From positions 1 through 56,410 of the forward strand of contig JAIQFQ010000020.1 of assembly GCA_020073245.1 (NCBI GenBank): DNA of 56,410 bases, written 5' to 3'. Both the position numbers and the translations under genes were made by a program. Source of the DNA: Terriglobia bacterium. Lineage in GTDB: Bacteria > Acidobacteriota > Thermoanaerobaculia > Thermoanaerobaculales > Thermoanaerobaculaceae. Position 1 is the stretch's first letter. Each line of letters begins with the position of its first letter. The notes below the pieces were generated by a model that worked only from the letters and a program-made list of their open reading frames with translations, did no database searches and had not been told where the DNA came from. Below are positions 9,241 to 56,410 of the stretch, one piece after another.

Positions 9241-9360
9241 CTGGCTGCGGCACAGGCCTCCGAGAGCACGCCTCAGGTCATCGCACGTAGTTCGTTCCGG
9301 CCCGAGGTCAGGCGCGCCGCCCACGCTGGGCCGGCGGAGCAGCCTAGGTGAGGCAAGCCT

Positions 9361-11175: not shown

Positions 11176-11263
11176 ACAACACCTCCTTCTGAGTACACGA
11201 CCCGCAGGTGGCTGCGGTGCTCCATTCGGCCGCACTTCGATTGATCGTTCTTCAAACTTAAAT

Positions 11264-11284
11264 CCCTTGCGGAGACTCCGCAAG
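11264..11284 (-). terminator. Hairpin downstream of the sulfatase-fold gene
   Basis: A perfect palindrome (11266-11284, CTTGCGGAG-A-CTCCGCAAG) lies about 130 bases after the sulfatase-fold gene on the minus strand. The minus strand then reads GGATTTAAGTTTG, a weak T-rich tail. A rho-independent terminator is plausible but not strong. The rest of 11176-11414 holds no gene. Confidence 0.4.
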
Positions 11285-11414
11285 GCCAGGCGAGGCCGCT
11301 CTATTCAAACCACGCCGACCGAGGCTCAGGCGCCGGTCTGATCCTCACGCCAAGTCGCTGGTGTGCTGCCAGCTGGGAGTGCCGGTTCACAGGATTGCGG
11401 GGGCTCTCTCCGAG

Positions 11415-13541
11415 CTACTGAACGTATCCGAGCGATCGCAGCCGTCGGAGAGCATCCTCGTCGACGCTCCCGCCGACGCCGCCGCTCAACGGTTTTCCCT
11501 TCAGCCACTCTTCCAGGCGCCCACCCAGAGCACGCGCCGCGGGATCATCCGGACGGTACCGGTTGTTGACCTCCTCGGGGTCGCCTGCAAGGTCAAACAG
11601 CTCTCGTCCGCCGTTCCCCATGGCGATGAGCTTCGTCGTCCCCGAGAACACCGCCCGTTCCATCCGCACGAATCTGGGACCGAAACCATCGTTGGGGAAA
11701 GATTCGCTCATCACGAATCGTGAGGTGTCATGTTCCAGGTCCTGAAGCGGATCGCCCTGGGTCTGCGCCGGCGTCGGAATACCAAGCGCGCTCAGGACGG
11801 TCGGCATCACGTCGACCTGGCTGACCAGCGTTCCGATCACCCGGGGTTGCTCCTGGTTGGGGTACTTGATGATCAGGGGAACATGAACCTGGTCCTGATA
11901 GAGCGAGTAGCCATGTCCGAGCAGGTCGTGTTCGCCGAACGCCTCACCATGGTCGGACGTGATCACGATCATGCTGTTCTGGAAGAGGCCGAGGCCCTTG
12001 AGCTGCGCGACGAGGCGCGCCAGCTGAGAGTCCAGGTACCTGATGCCCCCGTCGTACTGCGACACGAAATGCCGGCGCTCCTCGGCGGACACTCCCCTTT
12101 CCCCGTGCATGACCTGGGCCTGCATCGCTTGGTAGTCCGCAAACCGCAACGAGCGCTCCCTGCCCGGGAAGAGGGTGTTGAAAGGGGCCGGTGGGACATA
12201 GGGTGTGTGCGCATCCATGTAGTTCACGAAGAGGAAGAAAGGGACCGCTTCCCTCTGTGCTTGGACGAGCAGGGCGGACGCGGCCCGGTTGACCTCTCCG
12301 GCCCTCGAAAACTTCACACTCAACTCGTCCGACGAAACGAGGGCATCCACCAACGGGCCGAGATGAGAGCGCAGGAGGAACGGGGAGCTGGCCACGGCCG
12401 GGGCCAGGACGTAGGACGTCTCGAACCCTCGAGTCAGCCCGAAGCCGGGACCAAGGTAGCCATAGTTCGCCACCACGGCCATGGTGCGGTATCCGTTGGC
12501 GGATAGGACCTGCGCGAGGGTGGGATGGCGCCGACTCAGAGGGCGACCTTGAGGCAATTCGGGAGGCGCCAAGTACACACCGTTCCAACTTCCATAGAGC
12601 CCCGTGAACAACGAGGCGTGCGTGGTTAGGGTCAAGTTGCTGGTCGCGACGGCCTCCTCGTAGACCGTGGCCTCCCTGGCGAACTCCTTGAGAAACGGAG
12701 TCGTGTCCCGCGCGTATCCGTACAGGGAGAGATGGTCGGCCCTGACCGTGTCCATGGTCACCAGGATGATGTTCGGGCGGCCTGGCGAACCGCGGAGCTG
12801 CCAGGGCTGCGCCGGAGGAAGGCCCCATCGGGTGGCCGAAGGGGCGAGGCCCAGGACGACAGCACCCGCGAGTGCCAGGATCGCGCCCGCCCGCACAGGA
12901 AGAACAGAATCCGCCGGCAGCCTGAGCATCCTCCAGACGCGCGATCCGAGCAGTCCTGCGCAACCTACGACCAGTACCGTCCCGACCGCTCCAGCGAACT
13001 GCACCAGCTGGACCGAATTGTCCAGCGCACGCCGTCCGATCCACCCTCCGCCGAACATCAGGAGACCCGCCACCCACGGGTTGCCGAGAAACCCCAGCCT
13101 GTCACCCCAGGTCTCGTGCGTCTCGCAAAAGACCAAGCTGGCCGCCAGCCCGACGCTCACCGAGAAGCAGAGCGCCTCGACCTTGCCGAACGGACGCACG
13201 AGCGCCCAACTGACCGACGAGGCCGAGGCGAGCGCCACCACCGCCGCGCTCCGAAAACGCCTCGCGAGAGGGCGCCTGCGGGCCGCCACCGCTCGGTCAT
13301 CCTCCATCTTGAGGGCAAGCCCGGATACCGCCCCCAAGGCGATTCCCAGGACGACGAAGGAAGACATCACCGTCGCGATGACTCGCCAATAGCTTGATCC
13401 GGGCACACTCTCGCACCCTCGCCAAAGGGGAGAGGCGACGCTGATCGCCTGCTCGATCACCGAGTAGGCCCCCCAGACGACGGCCCCGTGCAAGGCCCCC
13501 CCAAGGACGTACTTCCCGGTACCGGCGGGACGGGTCACCAT
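11415..13541 (-). CDS. Membrane-anchored sulfatase/alkaline-phosphatase-superfamily hydrolase with Thr nucleophile
   Basis: A 708-residue protein. Residues 1-245 carry about six membrane segments and the rest forms a sulfatase-type (PF00884) domain facing the periplasm. NIILVTMDTVRADHLSLYGY (257-276) is the metal-binding strand, TSDHGEAFGEHDLLGHG supplies further metal and catalytic residues, and the C-terminus ends LRSLGYVQ as in many bacterial sulfatases. At the catalytic position where formylglycine sulfatases have CxPSR, this protein has T304-L-T-T-H308. It therefore cannot be matured to formylglycine and probably acts as a phosphatase, phosphotransferase or phosphodiesterase on lipid-linked or glycan phosphate. 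The ATG at 13541 follows directly from the divergent gap. No neighbour encodes a formylglycine-generating enzyme, consistent with this reading. Confidence 0.8.
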   Translation of the reverse strand: MVTRPAGTGKYVLGGALHGAVVWGAYSVIEQAISVASPLWRGCESVPGSSYWRVIATVMSSFVVLGIALGAVSGLALKMEDDRAVAARRRPLARRFRSAAVVALASASSVSWALVRPFGKVEALCFSVSVGLAASLVFCETHETWGDRLGFLGNPWVAGLLMFGGGWIGRRALDNSVQLVQFAGAVGTVLVVGCAGLLGSRVWRMLRLPADSVLPVRAGAILALAGAVVLGLAPSATRWGLPPAQPWQLRGSPGRPNIILVTMDTVRADHLSLYGYARDTTPFLKEFAREATVYEEAVATSNLTLTTHASLFTGLYGSWNGVYLAPPELPQGRPLSRRHPTLAQVLSANGYRTMAVVANYGYLGPGFGLTRGFETSYVLAPAVASSPFLLRSHLGPLVDALVSSDELSVKFSRAGEVNRAASALLVQAQREAVPFFLFVNYMDAHTPYVPPAPFNTLFPGRERSLRFADYQAMQAQVMHGERGVSAEERRHFVSQYDGGIRYLDSQLARLVAQLKGLGLFQNSMIVITSDHGEAFGEHDLLGHGYSLYQDQVHVPLIIKYPNQEQPRVIGTLVSQVDVMPTVLSALGIPTPAQTQGDPLQDLEHDTSRFVMSESFPNDGFGPRFVRMERAVFSGTTKLIAMGNGGRELFDLAGDPEEVNNRYRPDDPAARALGGRLEEWLKGKPLSGGVGGSVDEDALRRLRSLGYVQ

Positions 13542-13958
13542 CGCCCCTCAGGGGGCGCTTCGCTCGCTGCGAGCACCGTGGAGGGGGTCAATGCCGTCGT
13601 TCCGGTCTGCGAAAAGAGATCCTTTGCCACGTAAGCCGAGGATAGCATCGGCCACAATCGCCTGCGGCCGCGCAGAATCTCCCTCGGGGTTGCTCCGTCA
13701 CGCCTGCGGCGGGACTCGAAAGGACACAGAGGCCGGGGACAAGCCCAGCTTTCACGTCCCCCTTCGCGGGGCGGAGCGCCAGGCTCTTGCTCCTTCAGTG
13801 GCCGGCGCCGCGTGCCCTGAAGAGAAGGGCGGGGATCGCTCCCCGCACCTGCTGATTCGACGCGTTCGGATCCTGGTGCGCGGAGCGTGGCCACAGGCGT
13901 TCCTTGCAGCGCGGCGCCGGCCACGCTACCCTCCGCCCCAGAACGGAGAGATCCCCAG
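13542..13958. other. Divergent intergenic region with palindrome
   Basis: About 415 bases between divergent genes. It holds the hairpin GCGGGGA-TCGC-TCCCCGC at 13829-13846, nearly the same core as the groEL terminator at 20919-20944. On the minus strand TATCCT (13644-13639) preceded by TGC could be an extended -10 for the sulfatase-fold gene. No gene was recognised; frames across it look like shadows. Confidence 0.5.
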
Positions 13959-14741
13959 ATGAGACATGTCACAGGCGGGCTTGCGTTGGCGTCACTCCTC
14001 ATCGGGGCCTTCGCGGCCGGCGCGCCGGATGCGGCCGAGGTTGCAACCAGGGTTGCGGCGGGCGATGCCGCGTTGGCCAGGCTGGACCTCCACGCCGGCA
14101 TTGCAGCGTACCGCAGCGCCCTCGAGGTCGCGCCGGACAGCTTCGAGGCGCTCTGGAAGCTGACGCGCGCGCTGACCGACGAGGCAACTCTCTCGAAGCA
14201 GCCCAGTGAGCAGAAGAACCTCTGCATCGAGGCCGAGAAGCTGGCCCGCAAGGCGGTCAGCCTCAACCCATCGGATGCGAATGGCCACACCTACCTCGCG
14301 GTCGCGGTCGGCAAGCTGGCGCTGTTCGAGGGCGGCAAACGCAAGGTGGAGCTGTCCAAGGAGGTCAAGGCAGAGGCCGAGAAGGCGCTGCAGCTCAACC
14401 CGAACGAGGACACCGCTCTCCACGTCCTGGCGATCTGGAACCGCGAGATGGTCGAGCTGGGCTGGTTCCTGAAGAGCTTCGCTCAGCTCCTGTACGGGAA
14501 GTTCCCGCCGGCGTCGCTGGACACGGCGCTCGCCGATCTGAAGCACGCCTCCGAGCTCCAGCCGGGCGTTATCCCCCACCACGTCGAACTCGGCATCACG
14601 CTGGCCTCGGCCAAACGCTGGGGCGAGGCCAAGGCCGAGCTCGAGAAAGGCCTCGCGCTGCCGACCGGATGGGTGACCGATGACTACTACCGCGCCCTCG
14701 CACGCGAGAACCTCGCCCGGGTGCAGACCCACGCGAAGTAG
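13959..14741 (+). CDS. Exported TPR-like protein
   Basis: A 260-residue protein with a hydrophobic N-terminal signal (about residues 6-24, LALASLLIGAFAAGAPDAAE) followed by helical repeats. The pattern AxxLxPxxxxAxxxLA repeats, for example ARKAVSLNPSDANGHTYLAVAVG, AEKALQLNPNEDTALHVLAIW and ASELQPGVIPHHVELGITLA, as in tetratricopeptide repeats and the RMD1/regulator-of-microtubule-dynamics family. It is likely a periplasmic scaffold. The ATG at 13959 is chosen because the signal peptide begins there; the longer frame from 13887 lacks family sense. It stands alone, about 200 bases before the polyketide operon. Function unknown beyond protein-protein contact. Confidence 0.72.
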   Translation: MRHVTGGLALASLLIGAFAAGAPDAAEVATRVAAGDAALARLDLHAGIAAYRSALEVAPDSFEALWKLTRALTDEATLSKQPSEQKNLCIEAEKLARKAVSLNPSDANGHTYLAVAVGKLALFEGGKRKVELSKEVKAEAEKALQLNPNEDTALHVLAIWNREMVELGWFLKSFAQLLYGKFPPASLDTALADLKHASELQPGVIPHHVELGITLASAKRWGEAKAELEKGLALPTGWVTDDYYRALARENLARVQTHAK

Positions 14742-14940
14742 GGCGGCAGCTGGAACCGTTTCCGGAGGATCGTTGCGGAGCGACAGCGCTGAGGTTGGGA
14801 AGAACGTGAGGTGACGCCATGGCGGCAGACGTTCAGGTCGGTCGCGGGTTGATAGGGCGGGGTGACGCACGCTCGTGGAGAGTCGCGGAGCGCGTTGCCC
14901 TCTATCAGACGCCGCACGGGGCGCAAGGGGGCAACCGCTG

Positions 14941-16020
14941 ATGGAAGCCGGTCGGGCCCCGCGGATCCGCGCCGTCGGCCGCGCGCTCCCCACACACTAT
15001 GCCGACCAGGAGACCCTCATCGCGGCGTTCCGCGACGCCTGGGCCGGCGCCCACTTCAACGTCGAGCGGCTGGAGGAGCTCCACCGGGCCGTCCAGGTCT
15101 CCGGGCGGCACCTCGCCGTTCCGATCGAGCAGTACAAGGAGCTCGCGTCGTTTGCCCGTCGCAACGAGGTGTGGACGGAAGTGGCGGTGGACCTCGGGGA
15201 AGCGGCCGTTCGCGCGGCCCTCCAGCGTGCCGGCCTCGCGCCCCGGGAGATCGACCACCTCTTCTTCGTCACCACCACGGGGATCGCCACCCCGAGCATT
15301 GACGCACGCCTCGTCAACAGGCTGGACCTCCGGTCCGACGTACGGCGCACGCCGATCTTCGGACTCGGGTGCGCGGCCGGTGCGGCGGGAATCGCGCGTG
15401 CCTCCGATTCGCTGCGCGCCTTCCCGGACCAGGTCGCGGTCCTGCTCTCGGTGGAGCTGTGCTCGCTGACCCTGCAGCGGGACGACTTCTCGATCCCCAA
15501 CATCATCTCCTCGGGGCTGTTCGGCGACGGCGCGGCGGCGGTCGTGCTCACCGGGGGTGCGCGCGACATCCCAGAAGACGGCGCCGCGCCGCGCGTGGCG
15601 GCCACCGGCTCGGTGTTCTACCCGGGGACAGAGCGGGTGATGGGCTGGGACATCGTGGAGACCGGGTTCAAGGTCGTTCTCTCAGCCAAGGTGCCCGAGG
15701 TGGTGCGGGACCACGCGCGGCATGACGTGGACCGGTTCCTCGCGGCGAACGGGCTGGGGCGCTCCAAGATCCGCCACTGGATCGCCCACACCGGCGGTCC
15801 CAAGGTGCTCAAGGCGTTCGAAGAAACGCTGGAGCTGCCTGCGGGCGCCCTCGACCGCTCGTGGAAGTCACTGAGGGAGACAGGCAACCTCTCCTCGGCC
15901 TCGGTGCTCTTCGTCCTCGGAGAGCTTCTGGAGTCCAATGAGGTGAACGAGGGCGACCACGGGCTCCTGATGGCGATGGGGCCGGGGTTCTGCTCGGAGC
16001 TGGTGCTGCTGCAATGGTGA
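14941..16020 (+). CDS. Type III polyketide synthase (chalcone/stilbene synthase family)
   Basis: A 359-residue thiolase-fold enzyme. The catalytic triad is visible: C144 in GLGCAAGA, H283 in WIAHTGGPK and N316 in ETGNLSSAS. The spacings of 139 and 33 residues equal those of plant chalcone synthase (C164-H303-N336). The C-terminal GPGFCSELVLLQW matches the family GFGPG loop. Such enzymes extend an acyl starter with malonyl-CoA to make resorcinols, pyrones or quinone precursors. It opens an operon with a methyltransferase-like protein, an ACP, a fatty acyl-AMP ligase and a flavin oxidoreductase, which points to long-chain starters delivered on ACP and to alkylresorcinol- or alkylpyrone-type products (inference). 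The ATG at 14941 is preferred to a GTG at 14875. Its stop overlaps the next start by seven bases. Confidence 0.9.
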   Translation: MEAGRAPRIRAVGRALPTHYADQETLIAAFRDAWAGAHFNVERLEELHRAVQVSGRHLAVPIEQYKELASFARRNEVWTEVAVDLGEAAVRAALQRAGLAPREIDHLFFVTTTGIATPSIDARLVNRLDLRSDVRRTPIFGLGCAAGAAGIARASDSLRAFPDQVAVLLSVELCSLTLQRDDFSIPNIISSGLFGDGAAAVVLTGGARDIPEDGAAPRVAATGSVFYPGTERVMGWDIVETGFKVVLSAKVPEVVRDHARHDVDRFLAANGLGRSKIRHWIAHTGGPKVLKAFEETLELPAGALDRSWKSLRETGNLSSASVLFVLGELLESNEVNEGDHGLLMAMGPGFCSELVLLQW

Positions 16021-16586
16021 CCTCCGTAGCGCTCTACCTGGCCTTCCTGGGAGTGCTTTACGTCGAGCGGGGCGCGGAGCTGCTGGTGTCGCGCCGCAAC
16101 GCCCGCCTGGCGTTCGCGGCAGGCGGCGTGGAGACGGGCCGCCGCCACTTCGCCGTGATGGTCGCCGTCCACGCCCTCTTCCCGCTCGCCTGTGCGGTCG
16201 AGGTGCTCGCCCTGCATCGCGGCTTTCCGGGCGTCCTTGGTGTGATCGCCCTGATCATTGCACTCGCCGCCCAGGCGCTGCGCTGGTGGGTGGCCGCGAC
16301 GCTGGGCTGGCGCTGGAACACCCGGATTATCGTTGTGCCCGGCGCGGAGCCGGTGACTGCGGGCCCCTACCGCTTCCTGCGCCACCCCAACTACCTCGCG
16401 GTGATGCTCGAGGCTCTCTGCGTGCCCCTCATCCACGGGGCGTGGCTCTCCGCCATTGTGTTCCTGTGCGCGAATGCGGCTCTGTTGACCGTGCGGATTC
16501 CGGCCGAAGAGCACGCCCTGGGGGAGGGGTACTCCAGGGCGTTCGCCGGGGTCCGGCGGCTCACTCCGGGAGGTCGCCACGCCTGA
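16014..16586 (+). CDS. Isoprenylcysteine carboxyl methyltransferase-like membrane protein
   Basis: A 190-residue integral membrane protein with about five hydrophobic segments. The C-terminal GPYRFLRHPNYLAVMLEAL followed by EEHALGEGYSRAF is the ICMT/phospholipid methyltransferase signature that binds S-adenosylmethionine at the membrane face. Homologues sit next to bacterial type III polyketide synthases (as in the Streptomyces srs locus, where one methylates the alkylresorcinol/quinone ring), so it probably O- or C-methylates the lipid made by the upstream enzyme. It overlaps that gene by seven bases, which suggests translational coupling. Confidence 0.85.
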   Translation: MVTSVALYLAFLGVLYVERGAELLVSRRNARLAFAAGGVETGRRHFAVMVAVHALFPLACAVEVLALHRGFPGVLGVIALIIALAAQALRWWVAATLGWRWNTRIIVVPGAEPVTAGPYRFLRHPNYLAVMLEALCVPLIHGAWLSAIVFLCANAALLTVRIPAEEHALGEGYSRAFAGVRRLTPGGRHA

Positions 16587-46904: not shown

Positions 46905-47882
46905 TCACCAGAGCGGAAACGGAGCGACCTCGAAGTCGCGGCCCGAGCCGGCGAGACGGGTACCGGCGATGGCCTGAGCGCAGCGGACCAAGGTCAAGCC
47001 GACGCCGCCGTGGTCGGGGTGCCAGCCCCAGCTCGTGAGAACCCCGCGAGCCTTGGCCTCCGCCGGTAGCGCCAGCGGGAAGGGCAGCCCCGGCGACGTG
47101 GGTTCGCCATGGAGCTGGCGAACCCCCACCAACACCCGCGTGGGATGCCCGAACGCCTTCATCCGGGCCATCGTCTCCTGTCCGATGTAGCACCCCTTGG
47201 AGTATGAGATCGTCTCGTCATCGATCCCGACCTCCGGCGGGAGCACGGCCTGGGTCAGCTCGGCGCCCCACGCCGGCGCGCCGCGCCTGATGCGGGCGAG
47301 CTCCACCGTCTGCGGGAGCACGGGTCGAGCACCCTGGGCGTGAAGCGTCTGCCGGACCTCCTCGCCCGCGCCCACCAGCACTGCCCCGGAGATCCCCACC
47401 ATCGAGCGCCCGAACCATGACACGGACCGCCCGCCGAGCGTGCCCGAGTGCCACCCTCCGGCTTTCAGAACACGGGCGTCGCCCCCCAGGGCGGCGGCGG
47501 CCTCCGCCCATCGGGCACCCACGATCGCGGTCGCCCCTTCATGGTCCGGCACGGGCTCCGCGTCGCACCGGGAGAGGAGGAGGTATTTCCGGAGGGCTGC
47601 GGCCAGCTCGCCCTTCCGACCCGGCGGAACCATCAGAAGCGTATCGTCGGCGCCGGAGAAGGCGGCCATGATCGCCCGGAACTGGCCCTTGGGCGCCAGC
47701 AGCAGCGTGAGACGGCCCCCGCCGGGGAGGAGCGTCCGCAGGTCCTGACTCAGGACGCGCTGCAACACGTCGCGATGCCCCGCTCCGCTCACACGCACGA
47801 GGCCCGCGTCGGCGAGATGCAGGGACCCCGCCCCGGTCTCGAGTCGGTCCAACTCCTCCGCGATCCTCGCCTCGTGGCTCAT
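46905..47882 (-). CDS. ygfZ: YgfZ/GcvT-family folate-binding protein
   Basis: A 325-residue protein with the family signature SYSKGCYIGQETMARMKAFGH about two thirds along and an N-terminal part (VRVSGAGHRDVLQRVLSQDL, LLLAPKGQFRAIM) like the aminomethyltransferase GcvT. YgfZ proteins use folate to help repair or build iron-sulfur clusters. The K-G-C-Y-I-G-Q-E motif is intact. ATG 47882 gives MSHEARIAEELDRL. It is divergent from the chromate transporter, about 140 bases away, and probably housekeeping. Confidence 0.9.
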   Translation of the reverse strand: MSHEARIAEELDRLETGAGSLHLADAGLVRVSGAGHRDVLQRVLSQDLRTLLPGGGRLTLLLAPKGQFRAIMAAFSGADDTLLMVPPGRKGELAAALRKYLLLSRCDAEPVPDHEGATAIVGARWAEAAAALGGDARVLKAGGWHSGTLGGRSVSWFGRSMVGISGAVLVGAGEEVRQTLHAQGARPVLPQTVELARIRRGAPAWGAELTQAVLPPEVGIDDETISYSKGCYIGQETMARMKAFGHPTRVLVGVRQLHGEPTSPGLPFPLALPAEAKARGVLTSWGWHPDHGGVGLTLVRCAQAIAGTRLAGSGRDFEVAPFPLW

Positions 47883-48020
47883 GACGCAGCCCACAACACC
47901 TTTCGCGGGTGCGACCTTCCCGGACGTTCCTGCGACTGCGTCTTGACTCTGGGAAACCCGCTGCCGCACACTCCCCACGGGGGTGCCTTGAAGAGCGGCT
48001 CGGCGGTGGGTCGGCTGCGG

Positions 48021-49190
48021 ATGACAGCGACGTTCCTGCGGATCGGCGCGACGTCGTACGGCGGTCCGGCGATCGTCGCCCAGATCCGCAAGGTCACGGT
48101 CCACGACAAGGGTTGGCTCACCGATGACGAGTTCCGCGAATCGCTCGCCTTCGCCCAGATGCTTCCAGGGCCGATCGCGACCCAGACCGCCGCCCATATC
48201 GGCTGGAGGCTTCACCGGGGCGCCGGCGTCCTCCTCGCCATGCTGGCGTACAACTCGCCGGCGTTCCTGCTCATGCTCGCGCTCTCCGCCGCCTACTTCC
48301 ACTTCGAGCGGCTGCCGCTCGTCCATGCGGCGTTCCGAGGGCTGGGCGCCGCCGTGGTGGGGATCGTCGTCCAGTCCATCCTCTCGATGGCGCAGCCGGC
48401 GCTGCGGAACTGGCGCGGCCTCGTGATCGGCGGACTCGCGGCGTGGGGGTTCTTCGGCCGCGCCAACACCCTCCTCGTCCTGCTCGGTGCTGCCGTCGGC
48501 GGGATCGTGATGGGGGCCATCTGGCCGGACTCGCCGGACGCGGGAGGAGGACCCGAGGACATCGGGGACGGGGCACCACCAACCACGAAGTACCGCCGGA
48601 CCGTGCTCGCTGTGTGCGCGGTGGCGCTCGTGTACGCGGCTGCGATCGTCGCCTCGCGTCTGGCGTCGCCGACGCTGCCCACCCTTGGCGTGTCGATGAC
48701 GAAGATCAACCTCGTGGCGTTCGGCGGAGGCTACACCGCCGTGGCATTCATGTATCAGGAAGCCGTCCACAACCTCGCCCACGCCTGGCTCACCCCCAAG
48801 GAGTTCATCGACGGGCTCGCGCTGGGGCAGATCACGCCCGGGCCGGTCATCATCACGGCGACGTTCATCGGCTACAAGGTCGGCGGCGCCCTCGGCGCGG
48901 TGTTCGCCACCGTCTGCATCTTCCTGCCGTCGTCCCTGCTGCTCGTCCTGATCGCGCCGCACTTCGCGCGCTTCCGGCACCTGCGGGTCGTGCAGAGCGC
49001 CGTGGGAGGCTTGCTGGCGGCGTTCATCGCGATGCTCCTCCATGTCCTCGCCCAGGTTGCAAAGAGCGCGTTCATCGGGCCGTGGGACGTGGTTCTGTCG
49101 GTGGCCGCGGTCGCTGCGCTCCGTCTCAGGGTCGACGTTGTCTGGGTCGTGCTGGGCGCCACCGCACTCGCGCTCGTCTTTGTGCGGTAG
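48021..49190 (+). CDS. Chromate transporter (ChrA family, two-domain form)
   Basis: A 389-residue membrane protein with two repeated CHR domains (PF02417). Domain 1: SYGGPAIVAQIRKVTV, FRESLAFAQMLPGP and GWRLHRGAGVLLAM. Domain 2: FGGGYTAVAFMYQEAV, EFIDGLALGQITPGP and IGYKVGGALGAVFA. The repeated GLALGQ/ PGP pattern is the family hallmark. It exports chromate or takes up sulfate-like anions. ATG 48021 is chosen; GTG 48006 is possible. It is followed within 50 bases by the reductase gene on the same strand, hinting at a link with redox metal chemistry (inference). Confidence 0.88.
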   Translation: MTATFLRIGATSYGGPAIVAQIRKVTVHDKGWLTDDEFRESLAFAQMLPGPIATQTAAHIGWRLHRGAGVLLAMLAYNSPAFLLMLALSAAYFHFERLPLVHAAFRGLGAAVVGIVVQSILSMAQPALRNWRGLVIGGLAAWGFFGRANTLLVLLGAAVGGIVMGAIWPDSPDAGGGPEDIGDGAPPTTKYRRTVLAVCAVALVYAAAIVASRLASPTLPTLGVSMTKINLVAFGGGYTAVAFMYQEAVHNLAHAWLTPKEFIDGLALGQITPGPVIITATFIGYKVGGALGAVFATVCIFLPSSLLLVLIAPHFARFRHLRVVQSAVGGLLAAFIAMLLHVLAQVAKSAFIGPWDVVLSVAAVAALRLRVDVVWVVLGATALALVFVR

Positions 49191-49237: not shown

Positions 49238-50650
49238 ATGAACGTGGCGCCGGAAACCATGACCGCAGCGCCCTCCTCCATGCTGGCGCTCGCAACGACG
49301 GTGCACGTCGCGCTGCTGATGTTGCGCAGGTACCGCGGCGTCCTCAAGCTGGGCCAGGCAGGCGTGCTGCTGCCCTCTCTCGCCCTGACCGTCATGCCGT
49401 GGATCTACCCGGAGCCGAGGTGGATTCTTGCAGGCCTCGGGGTCCACTTCCTCTGGTTCGTGGCGTGCGAGAAGCTGGTGCCGAAGCCGGCGGCACCGGA
49501 ACCCGCCCGGCGGGCTGCCGCTCCGGCAGCGGCCACCGCGGCGCCGGCTCGACCGCCCGCTCCACGGGCGCCCGCCGGCTTCCAGTCGGTCCCGGTACTG
49601 GCGGTGTTCGAGGAAAGCGGGGACATCAAGACGTTTCGCATGCTCCGCCCGGAGGGGTTCGAGTTCGTGGCCGGCCAGTTCCTCACGGTGAAGGTCCAGG
49701 TCGAGGGGAAGCCGCTGGTGCGCTGCTACTCGATCAGCTCGTGTCCCTCGGCGACCGGCTACCTCGAGATCTCCGTCAAACGCCAGGGGGTCGTCTCGGG
49801 GATGCTGCACTCGACGATCCGGCCGGGCTCGATGCTGTCGGTCAACCGCCCCAACGGGAAGTTCACGTACCCCGAAGGCGATGACCGCCCGATCGTCTTT
49901 CTCGCGGGCGGGGTGGGGATCACACCGTTGATGAGCATGTTCCGTCATGCGATCGCGGCCGAGCCGGCGCGGCCGGTGACCCTCGTAATCTCCGCTAAGA
50001 CGGAGAAGGACGTCACGTTCCGGCGCGAGCTCGAGTGGCTCGCAGAGCGTTACCCGCAGGCCAAGGTCGCGCTCGCGGTGAGCGGCGGGTCCCTCGCGCT
50101 CGTCGGGGGCGGATCGTCCAGGATCGAGCGCTTCAGCGGCCGGGTCAACGAGACGCTCATCCGCAAGCTCGTGCCCGATACCGCCAACACGATCTTCATG
50201 ACGTGCGGCCCCGGCCCGATGATGGAGGGGATGAAGCAGCTCCTGACCGAGCTCGGCGTACCGGAGGCCCAGATACGCTACGAGGCGTTCGAGGCCGCGG
50301 TCGCGATGTCCAAAGAGGATCGTCCGGCACCGAGTCCGACAGGGGCGGTCGCCCACGCGGCGCCGGCAGCGCAAGCCGCCGCGTCGGGTGACGGGCCGCG
50401 CCTCACCCTGTGTCAAACCGGCGTCACCGTGGTCCTCGGCCCTCAGCAGACGCTTCTGGAAGCCGCCGAGGCCGCCGGCGCCGCAATTCCCAGCTCGTGC
50501 AGAAGCGGCGTCTGCATGACCTGCCGCACCCGCCTCGTCAACGGCGAGGTGGACTGCTCCTCCGACATGCTCGACGAGGACGACCGCGCCGAGGGGTTCA
50601 TCCTCCCCTGCGTGGCGTCGGCCCGCGGCGACTGCACCCTCGAGGCTTGA
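49238..50650 (+). CDS. Membrane-anchored FAD/NAD(P) oxidoreductase with C-terminal 2Fe-2S ferredoxin domain
   Basis: A 470-residue electron-transfer protein. Two to three N-terminal hydrophobic segments (residues about 10-70) are followed by an Ala/Pro-rich linker. The FAD domain has PLVRCYSISSCP, the NAD(P) domain AGGVGITPLMSMF and CGPGPMMEGMKQLL, and the C-terminal plant-type ferredoxin domain has C-x4-C-x2-C (CRSGVCMTC) plus a fourth Cys in ILPCVA. Electrons would pass NAD(P)H to FAD to 2Fe-2S at the inner membrane. The ATG at 49238 has GGAGAG just before it. It follows the chromate transporter by 47 bases and precedes a b-type heme protein, so it may feed that protein. Confidence 0.85.
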   Translation: MNVAPETMTAAPSSMLALATTVHVALLMLRRYRGVLKLGQAGVLLPSLALTVMPWIYPEPRWILAGLGVHFLWFVACEKLVPKPAAPEPARRAAAPAAATAAPARPPAPRAPAGFQSVPVLAVFEESGDIKTFRMLRPEGFEFVAGQFLTVKVQVEGKPLVRCYSISSCPSATGYLEISVKRQGVVSGMLHSTIRPGSMLSVNRPNGKFTYPEGDDRPIVFLAGGVGITPLMSMFRHAIAAEPARPVTLVISAKTEKDVTFRRELEWLAERYPQAKVALAVSGGSLALVGGGSSRIERFSGRVNETLIRKLVPDTANTIFMTCGPGPMMEGMKQLLTELGVPEAQIRYEAFEAAVAMSKEDRPAPSPTGAVAHAAPAAQAAASGDGPRLTLCQTGVTVVLGPQQTLLEAAEAAGAAIPSSCRSGVCMTCRTRLVNGEVDCSSDMLDEDDRAEGFILPCVASARGDCTLEA

Positions 50651-51097
50651 GACCGCCTCGCCGACCGCAACGAGGGGTGACACGTTTGGGCCGCCGCCGG
50701 CGTCGCCAGACCTCGAGTCCGTGGGACAGACCTGGGGCGTGCCGCCCGGGTCCGTAGTTCGCACGGCACCACAGCCGCCACCTCCGTAGTTTCCACGCAG
50801 ATCAACGCAGTCCCGGGGCGGGGTTGTTGCGCTTGTCACAGTTGCGTTTCGTCCCCAGTATGAAATGGAAATGAGGTCTCCAGAGGCGTGATGAAGACCA
50901 GCCAACGGTTGGCGGCGTCCGAACGTACAGGAAAGGACGCCGCAGTCAACACGGAGTGTGTCGGATCTCCGGCAGAGACCGGATTGCCTGGGGCGGGGAG
51001 CGACCTCATGCGTTTTCTTCGACGGAGTCGCCGAGGGCGTCACGGGGGGAGCGGCACCGATGACGATGCCGTGGGGGGCCAAAGGCCAAGAAATAGA

Positions 51098-51117
51098 AAA
51101 GTGACCTCCGTCACTTT
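51098..51117. promoter_or_regulatory. Palindrome AAAGTGAC-CTCC-GTCACTTT, CRP/FNR-like operator
   Basis: A perfect 8-bp inverted repeat with four bases between the arms. The core GTGA-N6-TCAC fits the half-sites of CRP/FNR-family regulators. It lies about 75 bases before the GTG start of the heme b gene, so it may control the cytochrome module by oxygen or redox state. Confidence 0.5.
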
Positions 51118-51149
51118 ATCAGGACGGCGTCTCGGTTTAGGCTCTCGAT

Positions 51150-51164
51150 TGTCAGAATTTGACA
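51150..51164. promoter_or_regulatory. Short palindrome TGTCA-GAATT-TGACA
   Basis: A perfect 5-bp inverted repeat with a five-base centre, about 35 bases after the palindrome at 51098. The right arm overlaps a TTGACA (51159-51164) that could be a -35 box, so it may be an operator or part of a promoter. Confidence 0.35.
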
Positions 51165-51190
51165 CTGGCCCGGGGGGGACAGCACAAAGC

Positions 51191-52270
51191 GTGACTAGAC
51201 GATCCAGCGCCAAGCTTGTGGAGGATTTTGAGGCCGTCGCCGCAAGCGACGCGGCCGACGTGTTCGTGGGTTCTGCACCCCGAGGGACGTCGGCCGGCGT
51301 CCGCGAGGACGTCTTCCTGCCACCCACACCGCGCCCGGGGATTGTCCGTGCAGGCGAGCGCACCGGCCCGGCCCCGGCAGCGAAGCAGGCCCGCGAGCGC
51401 GCACGGGCTCCACGCAGCGTTCTCATCCTCGCACTCCTGGTCACGATCGCGGTCGCAGCCGCCCTGCTGGTGGGCCTCGACGGCTGGACGTACTACCGGA
51501 CCCCGCTGGGCGTCCGCGGCTTCACGCCGGCCCACAAGATCCTGCGGCCTTCGGGCCAGATCGGCCTCGCGCTGGGCATCGGCGGCACGGTTCTGATGAT
51601 TCTGATGCAGGCCTACTCCCTGCGCAAGAAGCTCAAGATTCTGAGGAACGTCGGCTCGGTTCCCCGCTGGCTGGACTTCCATATCTTTTGCGGCATCCTC
51701 GGGCCGGTCCTGATCACCTTCCACACCTCGTTCAAATTCAACGGGATCGTGTCCGTCGCCTACTGGTCGATGCTGCTGGTCCTTGTGTCGGGTTTCGTCG
51801 GCCGCTACTTGTACGTCCGCATCCCCAAGAGCATCCGCGGCCAGGAGCTCTCCGTCGCCCAAGTCGAGGAGCGCGCCGCCGCGCTGAAGGCCGAGCTGCT
51901 CGGAATGAGGCTTCCCACGCACCTCGTGGAGGAAGTCGAGGCGTTCGAGGCCCGGGTGGTACCGCAACGAGACCTCGAACCGCGCTGGGGCGGCCTCCTG
52001 TTCGGCGAGCTGTACATCCGGTTCTCGCTGACTACGCTCAGGCGGCGCATACGTCACGACGGCGTCGGCGCGAGGACGCTTCACGATGTCATCGCTCTCA
52101 CCGTCGAGCGCGCCCTGCTTTTGCGGCGCCTCGCGTATCTCAAGAGGACGAAGAAGCTGTTCGAGCTTTGGCACATCTTCCACCGGCCCCTGGCGTACGT
52201 GATGCTGGCCATTGTTGTCGTGCACGTCGCCACGGCCATCTACTTCGGGTACGCGTTTGGCCACGGGTAG
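51191..52270 (+). CDS. Di-heme b-type membrane protein
   Basis: A protein of 359 residues from GTG 51191 with about five membrane segments. Two His pairs with the same spacing stand out: H-x13-H in FHIFCGILGPVLITFHTSF and H-x13-H in HRPLAYVMLAIVVVHVA. This is the bis-His pattern of b hemes stacked across a membrane. The first 75 residues are polar. A charged segment with VEERAAALKAELLG lies between the fourth and fifth segments. It probably takes electrons from the upstream flavoprotein or quinol and gives them to the giant cytochrome 10 bases downstream. Not assigned to a named cytochrome family. Starts at 50888 or later ATGs cannot be excluded. Confidence 0.75.
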   Translation: MTRRSSAKLVEDFEAVAASDAADVFVGSAPRGTSAGVREDVFLPPTPRPGIVRAGERTGPAPAAKQARERARAPRSVLILALLVTIAVAAALLVGLDGWTYYRTPLGVRGFTPAHKILRPSGQIGLALGIGGTVLMILMQAYSLRKKLKILRNVGSVPRWLDFHIFCGILGPVLITFHTSFKFNGIVSVAYWSMLLVLVSGFVGRYLYVRIPKSIRGQELSVAQVEERAAALKAELLGMRLPTHLVEEVEAFEARVVPQRDLEPRWGGLLFGELYIRFSLTTLRRRIRHDGVGARTLHDVIALTVERALLLRRLAYLKRTKKLFELWHIFHRPLAYVMLAIVVVHVATAIYFGYAFGHG

Positions 52271-52280
52271 AGGAGAGGTG

Positions 52281-55200
52281 ATGAACGCTCGGCGCATCGG
52301 CTCAGGCAAACGGCCTCTGAGATTTCTTGGAGTTTGCGGGGCCGCCGTTCTCCTGATGGTGTCTTCGGCCGCCGCCCAGGAGATCGGCGCTTTGGTGTCG
52401 CCCGGCCCGCTCGCCAAGGCGCACGCCAAGCTCGAGGGGATCGCCAACTGTCAGAAGTGCCACGAGCCCGGCCGCAAGGTCACGGCCGCGAAATGCCTGG
52501 AGTGCCACAAGCCGATCGCAGAGCGCATCGCAGCAAGAAAGGGTGTGCACCGCAACGTCACCGACGACTGCGTGAGCTGCCACATCGAGCACGCCGGCGC
52601 GGACGCGACCATCAGCAAGCTCGACCGACGGTCGTTCAACCATCTCCAGGAAACCGGCTACCCGCTCGACGGCAAGCACACCGCGCTCGCCGCCGATTGC
52701 GCGAAATGCCATAAGACCCGATCGTTTCTCGGCCTCAAGGCCGACTGCGCGACGTGCCATCAAGACCCCCACCGGGGCGTGCTGGGCGCCAACTGCGCCG
52801 GGTGCCACTCGACGGTTGTGGCGTTCAAGGAGTCCGAAAAAGCGTTCGATCACACCAAGACGGCGTTCCCGCTCACCGAGGCACACCTCAAGCTGGAGTG
52901 CGCCAAGTGTCACGTCAACAAGGTCTACAAAGGGATCAAGTTCGCGTTGTGCGTGGACTGCCACAAGGATCCCCACCTCCAGGCGTTCGGTTCCGGGTGC
53001 GTGAGCTGTCACGCCGGCGCGACGTGGAAGACCGACAAAGTGGACCACGGCAGGACCCGGTTTGCGCTCGCGGGCAAGCACACGACCGTCGCGTGCGTGT
53101 CCTGTCACCGGCAGCCGCCGATGCGGGCGAAGCTCGCGTTCGACCGCTGCATGGTCTGCCACGGCGATCCTCACAAGGGCGAGTTCAAACAGGACTGTGT
53201 CGCCTGCCACACGGTGGAGACGTTCCAGAAGGCGCCGTTCGACCACGGCGCGAAGACCGGCTTCCCCCTCACGGGCCGCCACGCCGAGATCCCGTGCGCC
53301 GACTGCCACAAGAAGACCCCGATGGCCCCGGGGCACGGGACCGCGCGCTTCACGACCACGGCGCCCGGCGTCGTCCTGGCCTCGTTCGCGATGACGGGCG
53401 ACCAGGAGACCCCGCCGAGCACGATGCGCGGCGGCAAGGGGTCGGCGGCTGTTGATTTCCGCGGTCTCTCCAAGGCCTGCGCGTCGTGCCACGCGGACGT
53501 CCACGCCGGCAAGCTCGGCACGGCCTGCGAGACCTGCCACGGCAACGACACGTTCCGCCTGACGAAGTTCAAGCACCCGAAGAACGCCGAACTCTACGGC
53601 GGCCAGCACGCCCAGGTCGCGTGCGGCAAGTGTCACGGCGGAGAGGGCGTCACCAAGACCGGTGTGACGGGCAAGCCGGTGGCCGCCCGCGTGTTTCGCG
53701 GCCTTTCCAGCGACTGCGCCTCGTGCCACAAGGACGTCCACCTCGGCCAGCTCGGCGCCAACTGCCAGACCTGCCACTCGGTGGACGCCCCCAAGTTCGC
53801 CGCGGACAAGTTCTCGCACGCGACGACGACGTTCGCGCTCGCCGGCAAGCATGAGAAGGTCGAGTGCGCCAAGTGCCACAAGCGCGAGACCACCGTCTTC
53901 CCCGCCGGGACGGGCGAGGCCGTGCACTTCAAGGGGGTCGCGACCGCATGCGCCTCGTGCCACAAGGACGTCCACCTCGGCCAGCTGGGCACCGGCTGTC
54001 AGAGCTGCCACACCCCGGAAACGTTCAAGCTCGCGAGCTACAAGCACCGCGAGAACCCCGGCTTCTTCGTGGACAAGCACGCGACCGTCCGCTGCCAGGA
54101 GTGCCACAGGAGCGTGGAGGCCGACTTCCCATCCGGTCGCGGCACCGCAGTACGGTACGCGCAGCTCACGTCGGCGTGCGCGAACTGCCACGAGGACGTG
54201 CACAAGGGGACGCTCGGCACCCAGTGCGAGTCGTGCCACACCCCGCATCAGTGGCCGGGCGCGTCACGTGCGTTCCACAAGGCGACTCTCTTCCCGCTCG
54301 ACGGTCAGCACCTCGGCGTTGCGTGCGCGTCGTGCCATCTCGACGGACAGACCAAGGGGACCCCGAACCGGTGCTACGACTGCCACTGGGTCCGTCACCA
54401 GGACGATCGGTTCAGGACCCAGCTCGGCACGAACTGCGAGAACTGCCACCGCACGACCTCCTGGCGGTCGGTGACGTGGGATCACGCGACTGCCACGGGG
54501 TTCGCCCTCGTCGGCGCGCACATGGCCATCGACTGCCAGTCGTGCCACCGAGACCAGCAGTTCGGCGCCACCTCGACGGCGTGCGTCTCGTGCCACCTCA
54601 CCGACTTCAACAAGGCGAAGGCACCCGATCACGTCCAGGCCGCCTTCCCCACCACCTGTGACACTTGCCATAAGTTCGCCGACACAAACTGGAACCAGGC
54701 GCACTTTGACCACGCCGCCACCGCGTTTCCGCTGCTCGGCGTCCATGCGACCCAAGCGTGCAACGCATGCCATGGCGACGGGGTCTACAAGGGCAAGTCC
54801 GTTGCCTGCGTGAGCTGCCATCAGACGGACTTCAACAATTCGAAGAACCCCAGCCACACCGCAGCCGGGTTCTCCACCGCGTGCGACACCTGCCACAAGG
54901 TCAGCGACATGAGTTGGAACCTGGCAACCTTCAACCACGCCGCCACCGCTTTCCCGCTCCTCGGGGCGCACGCCACACAGGCCTGTTCGACGTGCCACGG
55001 CGACAACATCTTCAAGGGCAAACCGACCACCTGCGTGTCGTGCCATATGACCGACTTCCAGAACGCGGTCACGCCTGTGAACCACGTCGCATCCAACTTC
55101 CCGACCACGTGCGACACGTGCCACAAGGTGTCCGACACGTCATGGACCCAGGCCACCTTCAACCACACGGCGTTCCCGCTTGCCGGCGTGCACGCCACGA

Positions 55201-56410
55201 CCGCCTGTGCGAACTGCCATGTGAACAACAACTTCAACACGCCCTTGCCGACCACGTGCGTCGGGTGCCACATCTCCACCTACCAGACCGCGACGACCCC
55301 TGTGAACCATGCCGGCCTGCCGACGACGTGCGACTCGTGCCACAACTTCGCGGATGCCGCCTGGACCCTGGCTTCGTCGTTCAACCACGCGACGTACTTC
55401 GCCCTCGCTGGTGCCCACACGACCGCCGCCTGCACGAGCTGCCACACCAACGGCAACTTCACCACCGTGCCGACCAGCCCGTGCTTCGCCTGCCACGCCA
55501 CCGACTTCGCCAACGCCACCACGCCGGTGCCGCACGCCGCGTTCCCGAACACTTGCGACACGTGCCACAAGTTCTCCGACACCTCGTGGACACAGGCGAC
55601 GTTCAACCACTCGAGCGTCTTCCCGTTGGTTGGCATCCACGCCACGACCGCGTGCGCGAACTGCCACATCACCAACAACTACACAACGGTGCCGACGACC
55701 TGCGCCGGGTGCCACATCTCCAGTTACCAGACAGCGACGACGCCGGTGAACCACGCCGGGCTCCCGACGACGTGCGATTCGTGCCACAGCAACGCCGACG
55801 CCGCCTGGACCCTGGCGTCGACGTTCAACCACGCGACGTACTTCGCCCTCGCCGGTGCCCACACGACTGCCGCCTGCACGAGCTGCCACACCAACGGCAA
55901 CTTCACCAGCGTACCGACCAGCCCGTGCTTCGCCTGCCACGCCACCGACTTCGCCAACGCCACGACGCCGGTGCCGCACGCCAGCTTCCCGAACACGTGC
56001 GACACGTGCCACAAGTTCTCCGACACCTCGTGGACGCAGGCGACGTTCACCAACCACGCGAGCGTGTTCCCGCTGGTCGGAGTGCACGCCACGACCGCCT
56101 GCGCGAACTGCCACATCAACAACAACTACACGACCGTGCCGACGACCTGTGCGGGGTGCCACATCTCCACCTACCAGACCGCGACGACGCCGGTGAACCA
56201 CGCCGGGCTCCCGACGACGTGCGACTCCTGCCACAGCAACGCCGACGCCGCCTGGACCCTGGCCTCGACGTTCAACCACTCGGCGTATTTCGCGCTTGCC
56301 GGCGCCCACTCCACGGCCGCGTGCACGAGCTGTCACACCAACGGCAACTTCACCAGCGTGCCGAAGACCCCGTGCTTCGCCTGCCACGCCACCGACTTCG
56401 CCAACGCCAC
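52281..56410 (+). CDS. Giant multiheme c-type cytochrome (3' end outside window)
   Basis: Open frame from ATG 52281 (AGGAGAGGTG just before it) to the right edge, at least 1376 residues. A signal peptide ends near VSSAAAQ, so it is exported. By reading the translation I count 53 CxxCH heme sites, about one per 26 residues. The first half contains heme pairs with phrases such as CASCHKDVHLGQLG and a single CxxCH after AFPLxGxH. The second half is built of longer, nearly identical repeats (period 444-447 bases, about 148 residues, six CxxCH each). With the b-type heme gene 10 bases upstream and a flavin/iron-sulfur reductase before it, a role in long-range or extracellular electron transfer is likely. 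No anchor or C-terminus can be seen because the gene is cut. Confidence 0.93.
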   Translation, partial: MNARRIGSGKRPLRFLGVCGAAVLLMVSSAAAQEIGALVSPGPLAKAHAKLEGIANCQKCHEPGRKVTAAKCLECHKPIAERIAARKGVHRNVTDDCVSCHIEHAGADATISKLDRRSFNHLQETGYPLDGKHTALAADCAKCHKTRSFLGLKADCATCHQDPHRGVLGANCAGCHSTVVAFKESEKAFDHTKTAFPLTEAHLKLECAKCHVNKVYKGIKFALCVDCHKDPHLQAFGSGCVSCHAGATWKTDKVDHGRTRFALAGKHTTVACVSCHRQPPMRAKLAFDRCMVCHGDPHKGEFKQDCVACHTVETFQKAPFDHGAKTGFPLTGRHAEIPCADCHKKTPMAPGHGTARFTTTAPGVVLASFAMTGDQETPPSTMRGGKGSAAVDFRGLSKACASCHADVHAGKLGTACETCHGNDTFRLTKFKHPKNAELYGGQHAQVACGKCHGGEGVTKTGVTGKPVAARVFRGLSSDCASCHKDVHLGQLGANCQTCHSVDAPKFAADKFSHATTTFALAGKHEKVECAKCHKRETTVFPAGTGEAVHFKGVATACASCHKDVHLGQLGTGCQSCHTPETFKLASYKHRENPGFFVDKHATVRCQECHRSVEADFPSGRGTAVRYAQLTSACANCHEDVHKGTLGTQCESCHTPHQWPGASRAFHKATLFPLDGQHLGVACASCHLDGQTKGTPNRCYDCHWVRHQDDRFRTQLGTNCENCHRTTSWRSVTWDHATATGFALVGAHMAIDCQSCHRDQQFGATSTACVSCHLTDFNKAKAPDHVQAAFPTTCDTCHKFADTNWNQAHFDHAATAFPLLGVHATQACNACHGDGVYKGKSVACVSCHQTDFNNSKNPSHTAAGFSTACDTCHKVSDMSWNLATFNHAATAFPLLGAHATQACSTCHGDNIFKGKPTTCVSCHMTDFQNAVTPVNHVASNFPTTCDTCHKVSDTSWTQATFNHTAFPLAGVHATTACANCHVNNNFNTPLPTTCVGCHISTYQTATTPVNHAGLPTTCDSCHNFADAAWTLASSFNHATYFALAGAHTTAACTSCHTNGNFTTVPTSPCFACHATDFANATTPVPHAAFPNTCDTCHKFSDTSWTQATFNHSSVFPLVGIHATTACANCHITNNYTTVPTTCAGCHISSYQTATTPVNHAGLPTTCDSCHSNADAAWTLASTFNHATYFALAGAHTTAACTSCHTNGNFTSVPTSPCFACHATDFANATTPVPHASFPNTCDTCHKFSDTSWTQATFTNHASVFPLVGVHATTACANCHINNNYTTVPTTCAGCHISTYQTATTPVNHAGLPTTCDSCHSNADAAWTLASTFNHSAYFALAGAHSTAACTSCHTNGNFTSVPKTPCFACHATDFANA
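55305..56410 (+). repeat. Tandem 444/447-bp repeat inside the giant cytochrome
   Basis: Matching landmarks recur at 55305, 55749 and 56196 and at 55481, 55925 and 56372: spacings of 444 and 447 bases. Each unit encodes six CxxCH motifs in a fixed order (CAGCH/CVGCH, CDSCH, CTSCH, CFACH, CDTCH, CANCH). The copies are nearly identical at DNA level, pointing to recent duplication or gene conversion. The repeat continues past the edge. Confidence 0.85.

What the first reader, a model, noticed from the sequence alone, without database searches (positions are those of the whole stretch)
52281..56410. Cytochrome with at least 53 c-type hemes, still open at the edge
I count 53 CxxCH motifs in 1376 residues. 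Well-studied multiheme cytochromes have four to a few dozen hemes, so this is among the larger ones. Dense hemes with short linkers would form a long conductive chain, either periplasmic or extracellular.
Basis: seen in the sequence. Interest (0 to 1): 0.75.

Follow-up and report, generated by a model that had tools for sequence, protein, structure and literature searches.

The report
One-chain cytochrome wire with 53+ hemes
The window ends inside a gene for a cytochrome with 53 heme-attachment motifs whose two parts match two separate proteins of other bacteria and are joined here in one chain, which would likely work as a wire that carries electrons out of the cell.

Summary
Confirmed: the open frame 52281-56410 has 53 CxxCH motifs (shuffles: mean 0.7, maximum 5) and is cut by the contig end, inside 444-nt tandem repeats. 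It is no record: 53 complete homologues of the same build carry 42-81 heme motifs. The chain looks like a fusion. Its first part (26 motifs) matches best the 20-23-heme proteins, and its second part (27 so far) the 19-40-heme proteins, which split relatives (including cultured Emticicia oligotrophica) encode as separate genes. In the 53 complete fusions the first part has 26 motifs (51) or 23 (2); the second has 16-55, always in steps of three. Upstream lie a five-helix protein with the published PCC3 inner-membrane signature and a FAD/NAD/2Fe-2S reductase. In relatives a ~440-residue protein with a confident beta-barrel model follows. Best reading: a PCC3-like porin-cytochrome conduit whose periplasmic and extracellular cytochromes are one chain, with NAD(P)H rather than quinol as the likely electron source. 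The path through the barrel, the direction of flow and the function are inferred. The cytochrome's own fold prediction failed (pLDDT 44), and the barrel gene was not found in this draft genome. It is not filed as PCC3, since separate cytochrome genes are part of that definition.

The parts
49238..50650 (+). FAD/NAD(P)/2Fe-2S reductase with three N-terminal hydrophobic segments; likely the electron entry (start uncertain: first Met of the frame used)
   Evidence: Pfam FAD_binding_6, NAD_binding_1 and Fer2 above cut-off; hydrophobic segments; same place in 11 of 13 window-type loci
50888..52270 (+). Inner-membrane protein (IMP) with two WX3HX13H motifs and SGXXG, predicted to hold two b hemes; the 5' end of the frame is uncertain (the conserved part begins near 51320)
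   Evidence: Motif residues invariant in 13 of 13 aligned relatives; five hydrophobic segments; no Pfam family above cut-off
52281..56410 (+). Fused multiheme cytochrome c, 53 CxxCH, open at the contig end; signal peptide at about 52281-52377 (by eye)
   Evidence: Pfam Cytochrome_C7 195 bits
52281..54407 (+). N part, 26 heme motifs, periplasmic-type
   Evidence: Best match to split 20-23-heme proteins; 26 motifs in 51 of 53 complete homologues
54408..56410 (+). C part, 27 heme motifs so far, extracellular-type triheme repeats of about 74 residues
   Evidence: Best match to split 19-40-heme proteins; 16-55 motifs in steps of three in 53 of 53 complete homologues
55093..56410 (+). 444-nt tandem array within the C part, where the contig ends

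Best explanation
The gene encodes a multiheme cytochrome c made of two parts that match two separate proteins of other bacteria, and it is likely the one-chain wire of a PCC3-like porin-cytochrome conduit that would pass electrons from a predicted NAD(P)H-linked inner-membrane cytochrome b out of the cell. Shown: 53 heme motifs; the two-part match; the order reductase - IMP - cytochrome here, and the same order followed by a barrel-like protein in relatives; an N-terminal motif number of 26 and a C-terminal number that varies in steps of three. Inferred: (1) NAD(P)H reduces the FAD/2Fe-2S reductase; (2) electrons cross the inner membrane through two b hemes of the IMP, as in NADPH oxidases and ferric reductases; (3) they enter the 26-heme part, which spans the periplasm; (4) the chain passes through the downstream barrel; (5) the triheme repeats lie outside and meet minerals, humics or partner cells. 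Export is taken as likelier because it is the downhill direction from NAD(P)H.
For: Fusion: four split proteins of 20-23 hemes prefer the N half (321-354 bits against 158-192) and five of 19-40 hemes prefer the C half (336-512 against 155-236), 9 of 9 consistent. Count pattern: N part 26 in 51 and 23 in 2 of 53 complete homologues; C part 16-55, 53 of 53 with remainder 1 modulo 3. IMP: WX3HX13H twice and SGXXG invariant in 13 of 13, the published PCC3 IMP signature (PMC5566968, section 17). Reductase upstream in 11 of 13 window-type loci; in the split loci a different NAD(P)-binding flavoprotein with 4Fe-4S motifs lies in the cluster in 7 of 7 where that side is held. Barrel: in 14 of 99 genomes, directly after the cytochrome on the same strand in 13 of the 14; model pLDDT 84.8, matching outer-membrane barrels. 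Cytochrome c assembly genes in the own genome.
Against: The barrel was not found in the window's own genome, which is 94.2% complete, and the window's cytochrome is incomplete. Two of 13 loci lack reductase and IMP beside the cytochrome: G033 (short variant) and G004 (only a remnant that looks IMP-like by eye). The split 20-23-heme proteins reach only to about residue 562-637 of the 709-residue N part, and because all parts are related repeats the wrong half still scores up to 236 bits. The IMP is below the Pfam Ferric_reduct cut-off (15.7 against 28 bits). TM-scores of the barrel model to the 50 solved barrels shown are at most 0.50. The cytochrome model failed. No functional data.
Confidence: 0.57

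Rival explanations
1. Same conduit, but the IMP exchanges electrons with the quinone pool, as proposed for PCC3, the reductase only supplements it, and the flow may be inward (oxidation of outside Fe(II) or other donors).
For: This is the published PCC3 hypothesis (PMC5566968, sections 15 and 17); PCC3 genes are expressed in iron oxidisers (PMC12442390, passages).
Against: FAD/NAD-type reductases of two different Pfam make-ups accompany the IMP in window-type and split loci.
Confidence: 0.27
2. The fused cytochrome lies wholly on one side of the outer membrane, as a periplasmic heme store or an extracellular wire, and the downstream barrel is an unrelated porin or a secretion pore.
For: No structure of the complex could be made; no direct evidence of threading exists.
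Against: A fixed N-part count beside a variable C-part count, and the barrel's position directly after the cytochrome in 13 of 14 genomes, fit a trans-membrane chain better.
Confidence: 0.12
3. The fusion or the motif number is an assembly artefact of repeats.
For: The contig breaks inside similar repeats; in 10 of 13 loci that hold the 5' end of the cytochrome the contig ends inside the gene. The repeat number near the window end is therefore not safe.
Against: The junction at 54408 lies upstream of the array and is crossed in frame in 53 complete homologues, among them P0013 on a contig of 2.98 Mb, and in the intact four-gene locus of G077.
Confidence: 0.03

Closest known systems
PCC3 porin-cytochrome cluster (PMC5566968; Sideroxydans lithotrophicus ES-1 Slit_1446-1449 as named in PMC12016527)
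   Same: IMP signature (two WX3HX13H, SGXXG); a periplasmic-type part of 20-27 hemes and an extracellular-type part of very variable heme number; a barrel protein in the cluster of relatives
   Different: The two cytochromes are one chain; a FAD/NAD/2Fe-2S reductase gene is part of the cluster; the barrel is about 440 residues. Sequences were not compared with the published PCC3 proteins
Split cluster of Emticicia oligotrophica DSM 17448, plasmid pEMTOL02 (L095)
   Same: IMP of the same family (34% identity), cytochromes that match the N and the C part in the same order, then a 538-residue protein
   Different: Two cytochrome genes (23 and 40 hemes, overlapping by 22 nt); an NAD(P)-binding Pyr_redox/4Fe-4S protein instead of the FAD_6/NAD_1/Fer2 reductase
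MtrCAB / MtoAB porin-cytochrome complexes
   Same: Works alike as inferred: a heme chain through an outer-membrane barrel; a sub-threshold hit to the DmsE (MtrA-like) decaheme model
   Different: Below that model's cut-off (59.9 against 192.2 bits); 53+ instead of 10 hemes; one chain for inside and outside
NADPH oxidase / ferric reductase (FRD) with FAD-NAD dehydrogenase
   Same: Two helices each with HX13H beside a FAD/NAD reductase; weak Pfam Ferric_reduct hits in 7 of 13 IMPs
   Different: Separate reductase gene with a 2Fe-2S domain; electrons would go to a cytochrome c; window member below the Pfam cut-off
c7-type multidomain cytochromes, PDB 3ov0 (recalled as the dodecaheme GSU1996 of Geobacter sulfurreducens)
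   Same: Pfam Cytochrome_C7 and profile match E 3.3e-10; triheme units
   Different: Far fewer hemes; not known to me as part of a porin cluster (recalled)

Membership tests
[quoted passage not shown]
   Invariant in 13 of 13 aligned sequences including the window; five hydrophobic segments; definition read
PCC3 | Separate genes for a periplasmic and an extracellular multiheme cytochrome | tested here: not met
   One frame covers both parts; therefore called PCC3-like, not PCC3
PCC3 | Beta-barrel porin gene in the cluster | tested here: inconclusive
   Present directly downstream in 13 of 14 relatives that have it; the window's contig ends before that place and the own genome gave no match
PCC3 | Sequence relationship with the published PCC3 proteins (Slit_1446-1449) | not tested
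   Those sequences were not fetched
DmsE/MtrA decaheme cytochromes | NCBIfam TIGR03508 above its cut-off | tested here: not met
   59.9 against 192.2 bits
Ferric reductase / NADPH oxidase transmembrane domain | Pfam PF01794 above its cut-off | tested here: not met
   15.7 against 28 bits for the window member; 7 of 13 IMPs match at E up to 1, best 2.7e-4
Ferric reductase / NADPH oxidase transmembrane domain | HX13H on two helices for two b hemes | tested here: met
   heme binding itself untested
Outer-membrane beta-barrel (downstream protein of relatives) | Closed barrel fold | tested here: met
OmcS-like cytochrome nanowire | Small subunit that polymerises into a filament | not testable with these tools
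   Polymerisation cannot be read from the sequence here

The most novel reading that the evidence does not exclude
A single polypeptide is the complete wire from the outer face of the inner membrane, across the periplasm and through an outer-membrane barrel, to far outside the cell, fed by a split NADPH-oxidase-like module instead of quinol: a quinone-bypassing electron vent whose periplasmic length is fixed at 26 hemes and whose outside length is tuned by adding triheme units.
Probability: 0.38. Interest if true: 0.82.

Novelty: new variant of a known kind. Interest (0 to 1): 0.62.

Why it matters
PCC3 is a predicted conduit whose function its own literature calls untested (PMC12442390, passages). 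A natural fusion of its two kinds of cytochrome suggests that they touch in the split form and gives their order. The fixed 26 against 16-55 motifs in steps of three turns topology into a testable statement: one part spans a fixed gap, the other hangs free. The pairing of the inner-membrane cytochrome with NAD(P)-type flavoproteins of two different make-ups questions the published quinone model. A practical point: because contigs break inside the repeats (10 of 13 loci here), draft genomes will show these proteins too short or miss the partner gene behind them.

Tried and rejected
Tried without result: the AlphaFold model of the first 1,200 residues of the cytochrome (35-row alignment) has pLDDT 44 and pTM 0.22 and was not searched. 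A single-sequence PDB search of the cytochrome gave nothing; a profile gave three matches. The IMP against PDB gave only chance-like matches, alone and as a profile. Pfam found nothing for the five downstream barrel-like frames and the two longer frames of the split loci that I sent. Searches for another copy, the rest of the gene or the barrel in the own genome found none. In the VIA-align second look no cytochrome-conduit barrel is among the 50 entries shown; by the tool's own note this excludes nothing.

Considered and rejected: a chance run of motifs; a chimera at the junction; DmsE/MtrA membership; a record heme number. A first junction count with a strict pattern mapped only 54 of 120 sequences and was replaced by an alignment-based mapping of all 119 listed homologues. 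Of the 119, 53 have both end signatures. The other 66 were left out: cut proteins, proteins that my N pattern missed though they also map to 26 (P0003, for example), proteins without my C signature, and proteins that begin like the extracellular type. Of the 64 with the N signature, 61 have 26, two have 23 and one (P0108, weak mapping) has 8. Counts include CxxxCH and CxxxxCH.

Literature: ten searches listed no paper whose title or shown abstract start describes a fused PCC3 cytochrome; most papers were seen only as listings. Seen in more depth: PMC5566968 (passages, sections 15 and 17), PMC7399161 (passages, section 18), and passages of PMC8100337, PMC11475568, PMC10734462, PMC12016527 and PMC12442390. 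Absence in print is claimed for these searches only; supplements were not read.
Full report
Observation. The frame beginning at ATG 52281 stays open to the end of the window and holds 53 CxxCH motifs in 1,375 codons; residue shuffles reach at most 5. The window equals contig C74 of a 4.38-Mb, 89-contig genome. The contig stops within a 444-nt tandem array. Of the 13 loci that hold the 5' end of such a cytochrome (the window and 12 relatives), 10 contigs end inside the gene (G000, G001, G004, G021, G023, G025, G033, G040, G044, G068) and three reach past it (G006, with a run of N; G050; G077). The cut is thus a common assembly effect.

Organism. Contigs G006:C158 and G001:C69, of two genomes of the same genus as the window, have the lengths of MEKI01000158.1 (Acidobacteria bacterium RBG_13_68_16) and SCRJ01000202.1 (Acidobacteria bacterium FW104_bin.1); for the first the opening 60 bases are also identical. 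The window is therefore taken to come from an uncultured acidobacterium.

Relatives. A protein search gave 2,455 homologues among 7,995 scored candidates; the best 120 are listed, the window itself among them. Names given there include Thermoanaerobaculia and other Acidobacteriota, one Calditrichaeota and one Candidatus Eisenbacteria. Of the 99 genomes searched (own genome included) 24 have a match, 17 of them with E below 1e-40. Closest is P0002: 76% identity, 1,706 residues, 65 CxxCH plus one CxxxCH. It runs 331 residues with 12 CxxCH past the window's end, so a total near 65 is a fair guess for this gene, no more than that.

Two-part architecture. In genomes G039, G087 and G097 (L046, L045, L047) and in Emticicia oligotrophica (plasmid pEMTOL02, L095) the region is split: one 20-23-heme protein near the inner-membrane gene, and further proteins of 19-40 hemes. 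Nine such proteins were compared with the window's two halves (residues 1-690 and 700-1375). All four of the first kind score higher with the N half (321-354 bits against 158-192) and all five of the second kind with the C half (336-512 against 155-236); the halves of the complete homologue P0035 give the same 9 of 9. Limits: the parts are related repeats, and the 20-23-heme proteins reach only to about residue 562-637 of the 709-residue N part. The start signature of the first kind and the end signature of the second are the start and end of the fused proteins. In Emticicia the two genes overlap by 22 nt, in the order of the fusion.

Fixed and variable parts. The junction (residue 710, base 54408) was mapped on all 119 other listed homologues. 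Of these, 53 have both end signatures. Their N part has 26 heme motifs in 51 cases and 23 in two; the C part has 16 to 55, and all 53 values leave remainder 1 on division by three. The window has 26 plus 27 so far. My reading: the N part spans the periplasm, whose width is set, and the C part grows outside by whole triheme units. A published remark holds that 21-27 hemes could span the periplasm (PMC10734462, passage).

Neighbours. Ten bases upstream ends the IMP gene, with five hydrophobic segments, W-x3-H-x13-H on the third and fifth and SGxxG on the fourth; these residues are invariant in 13 of 13 aligned sequences. That is the published signature of the PCC3 inner-membrane protein, thought to hold two b hemes as in ferric reductases and NADPH oxidases (PMC5566968, section 17). 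Before it lies a FAD/NAD/2Fe-2S reductase with three hydrophobic N-terminal segments. Homologues of both stand in the same order in 11 of 13 window-type loci. Exceptions: G033, a short variant with neither gene in the 17.8 kb held, and G004, with only a remnant that looks IMP-like by eye. In the split loci a different NAD(P)-binding flavoprotein with 4Fe-4S motifs is in the cluster in 7 of 7 loci where that side is held: between IMP and cytochrome in L035, L036, L038 and L095, and after the 20-heme gene in L045 (partial, at the edge of the stretch), L046 and L047; L037 does not hold that side (Pfam domains were checked in four of the seven, the rest by sequence match). On a Variovorax plasmid a FAD/NAD/2Fe-2S reductase gene stands directly before an IMP-like gene and a cytochrome c3; on a Bradyrhizobium plasmid another stands before a gene annotated as iron reductase and a cytochrome c3. 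That two different NAD(P)-type enzymes go with one inner-membrane cytochrome makes NAD(P)H the likely partner; this is inference.

An intact example is G077 (L039): reductase 8302-9591, IMP 9727-10767, cytochrome 10772-14875 with 54 CxxCH, barrel 14894-16237, all on one strand.

Mechanism and limits. I commit to a PCC3-like conduit in one chain, fed by NAD(P)H, most likely outward. Shown are the architecture, the gene order and the count pattern. Inferred are the path through the barrel, the direction, the donor and any outside partner. The genome has cytochrome c assembly genes (two PF01578 matches). The cytochrome's own fold could not be predicted; the best solved relative by profile is 3ov0, E 3.3e-10.

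Known or new. Giant heme numbers are known: 85 in one PCC3 protein (PMC5566968, section 15). PCC3 function is described as untested (PMC12442390, passages). A porin-cytochrome cluster in an acidobacterium was reported in 2020, with MtrB- and Ext-type porins (PMC7399161, section 18). A fused PCC3 cytochrome with a NAD(P)-type reductase did not turn up in my ten searches, most of whose papers I saw only as listings. I rate it a new variant of a known kind.

Noticed in passing
L095 (Emticicia oligotrophica DSM 17448 plasmid pEMTOL02), 11818-23616: A cultured bacterium carries on a plasmid a split PCC3-like cluster: ccsA, IMP, NAD(P)-binding flavoprotein with 4Fe-4S motifs, two multiheme cytochromes and a 538-residue protein.
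   Followed up: partly
L103 (own genome G000:C13:4000-14000): The same genome has another frame of 964 residues with 19 CxxCH, and Cytochrome_C7 matches on further contigs.
   Followed up: no
window 47448-49190: A chromate transporter gene precedes the reductase; a homologue also precedes the cluster in G006, and a chromate-transporter-like frame precedes the cytochrome in G004, both of the same genus.
   Followed up: no
L027 (G004), about 1133-1426: Where reductase and IMP would stand, only a short frame that looks like an IMP remnant lies before the cytochrome: a deletion or an assembly join.
   Followed up: partly
L093 (Bradyrhizobium sp. BTAi1) and L094 (Variovorax sp. RA8) plasmids: FAD/NAD/2Fe-2S reductase, small membrane protein and cytochrome c3 genes stand together near multicopper oxidase and copper resistance genes.
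   Followed up: no
P0012, P0058, P0091: These homologues end in tails of 79-138 residues after the last heme motif that look frameshifted, so their heme counts are lower bounds.
   Followed up: no
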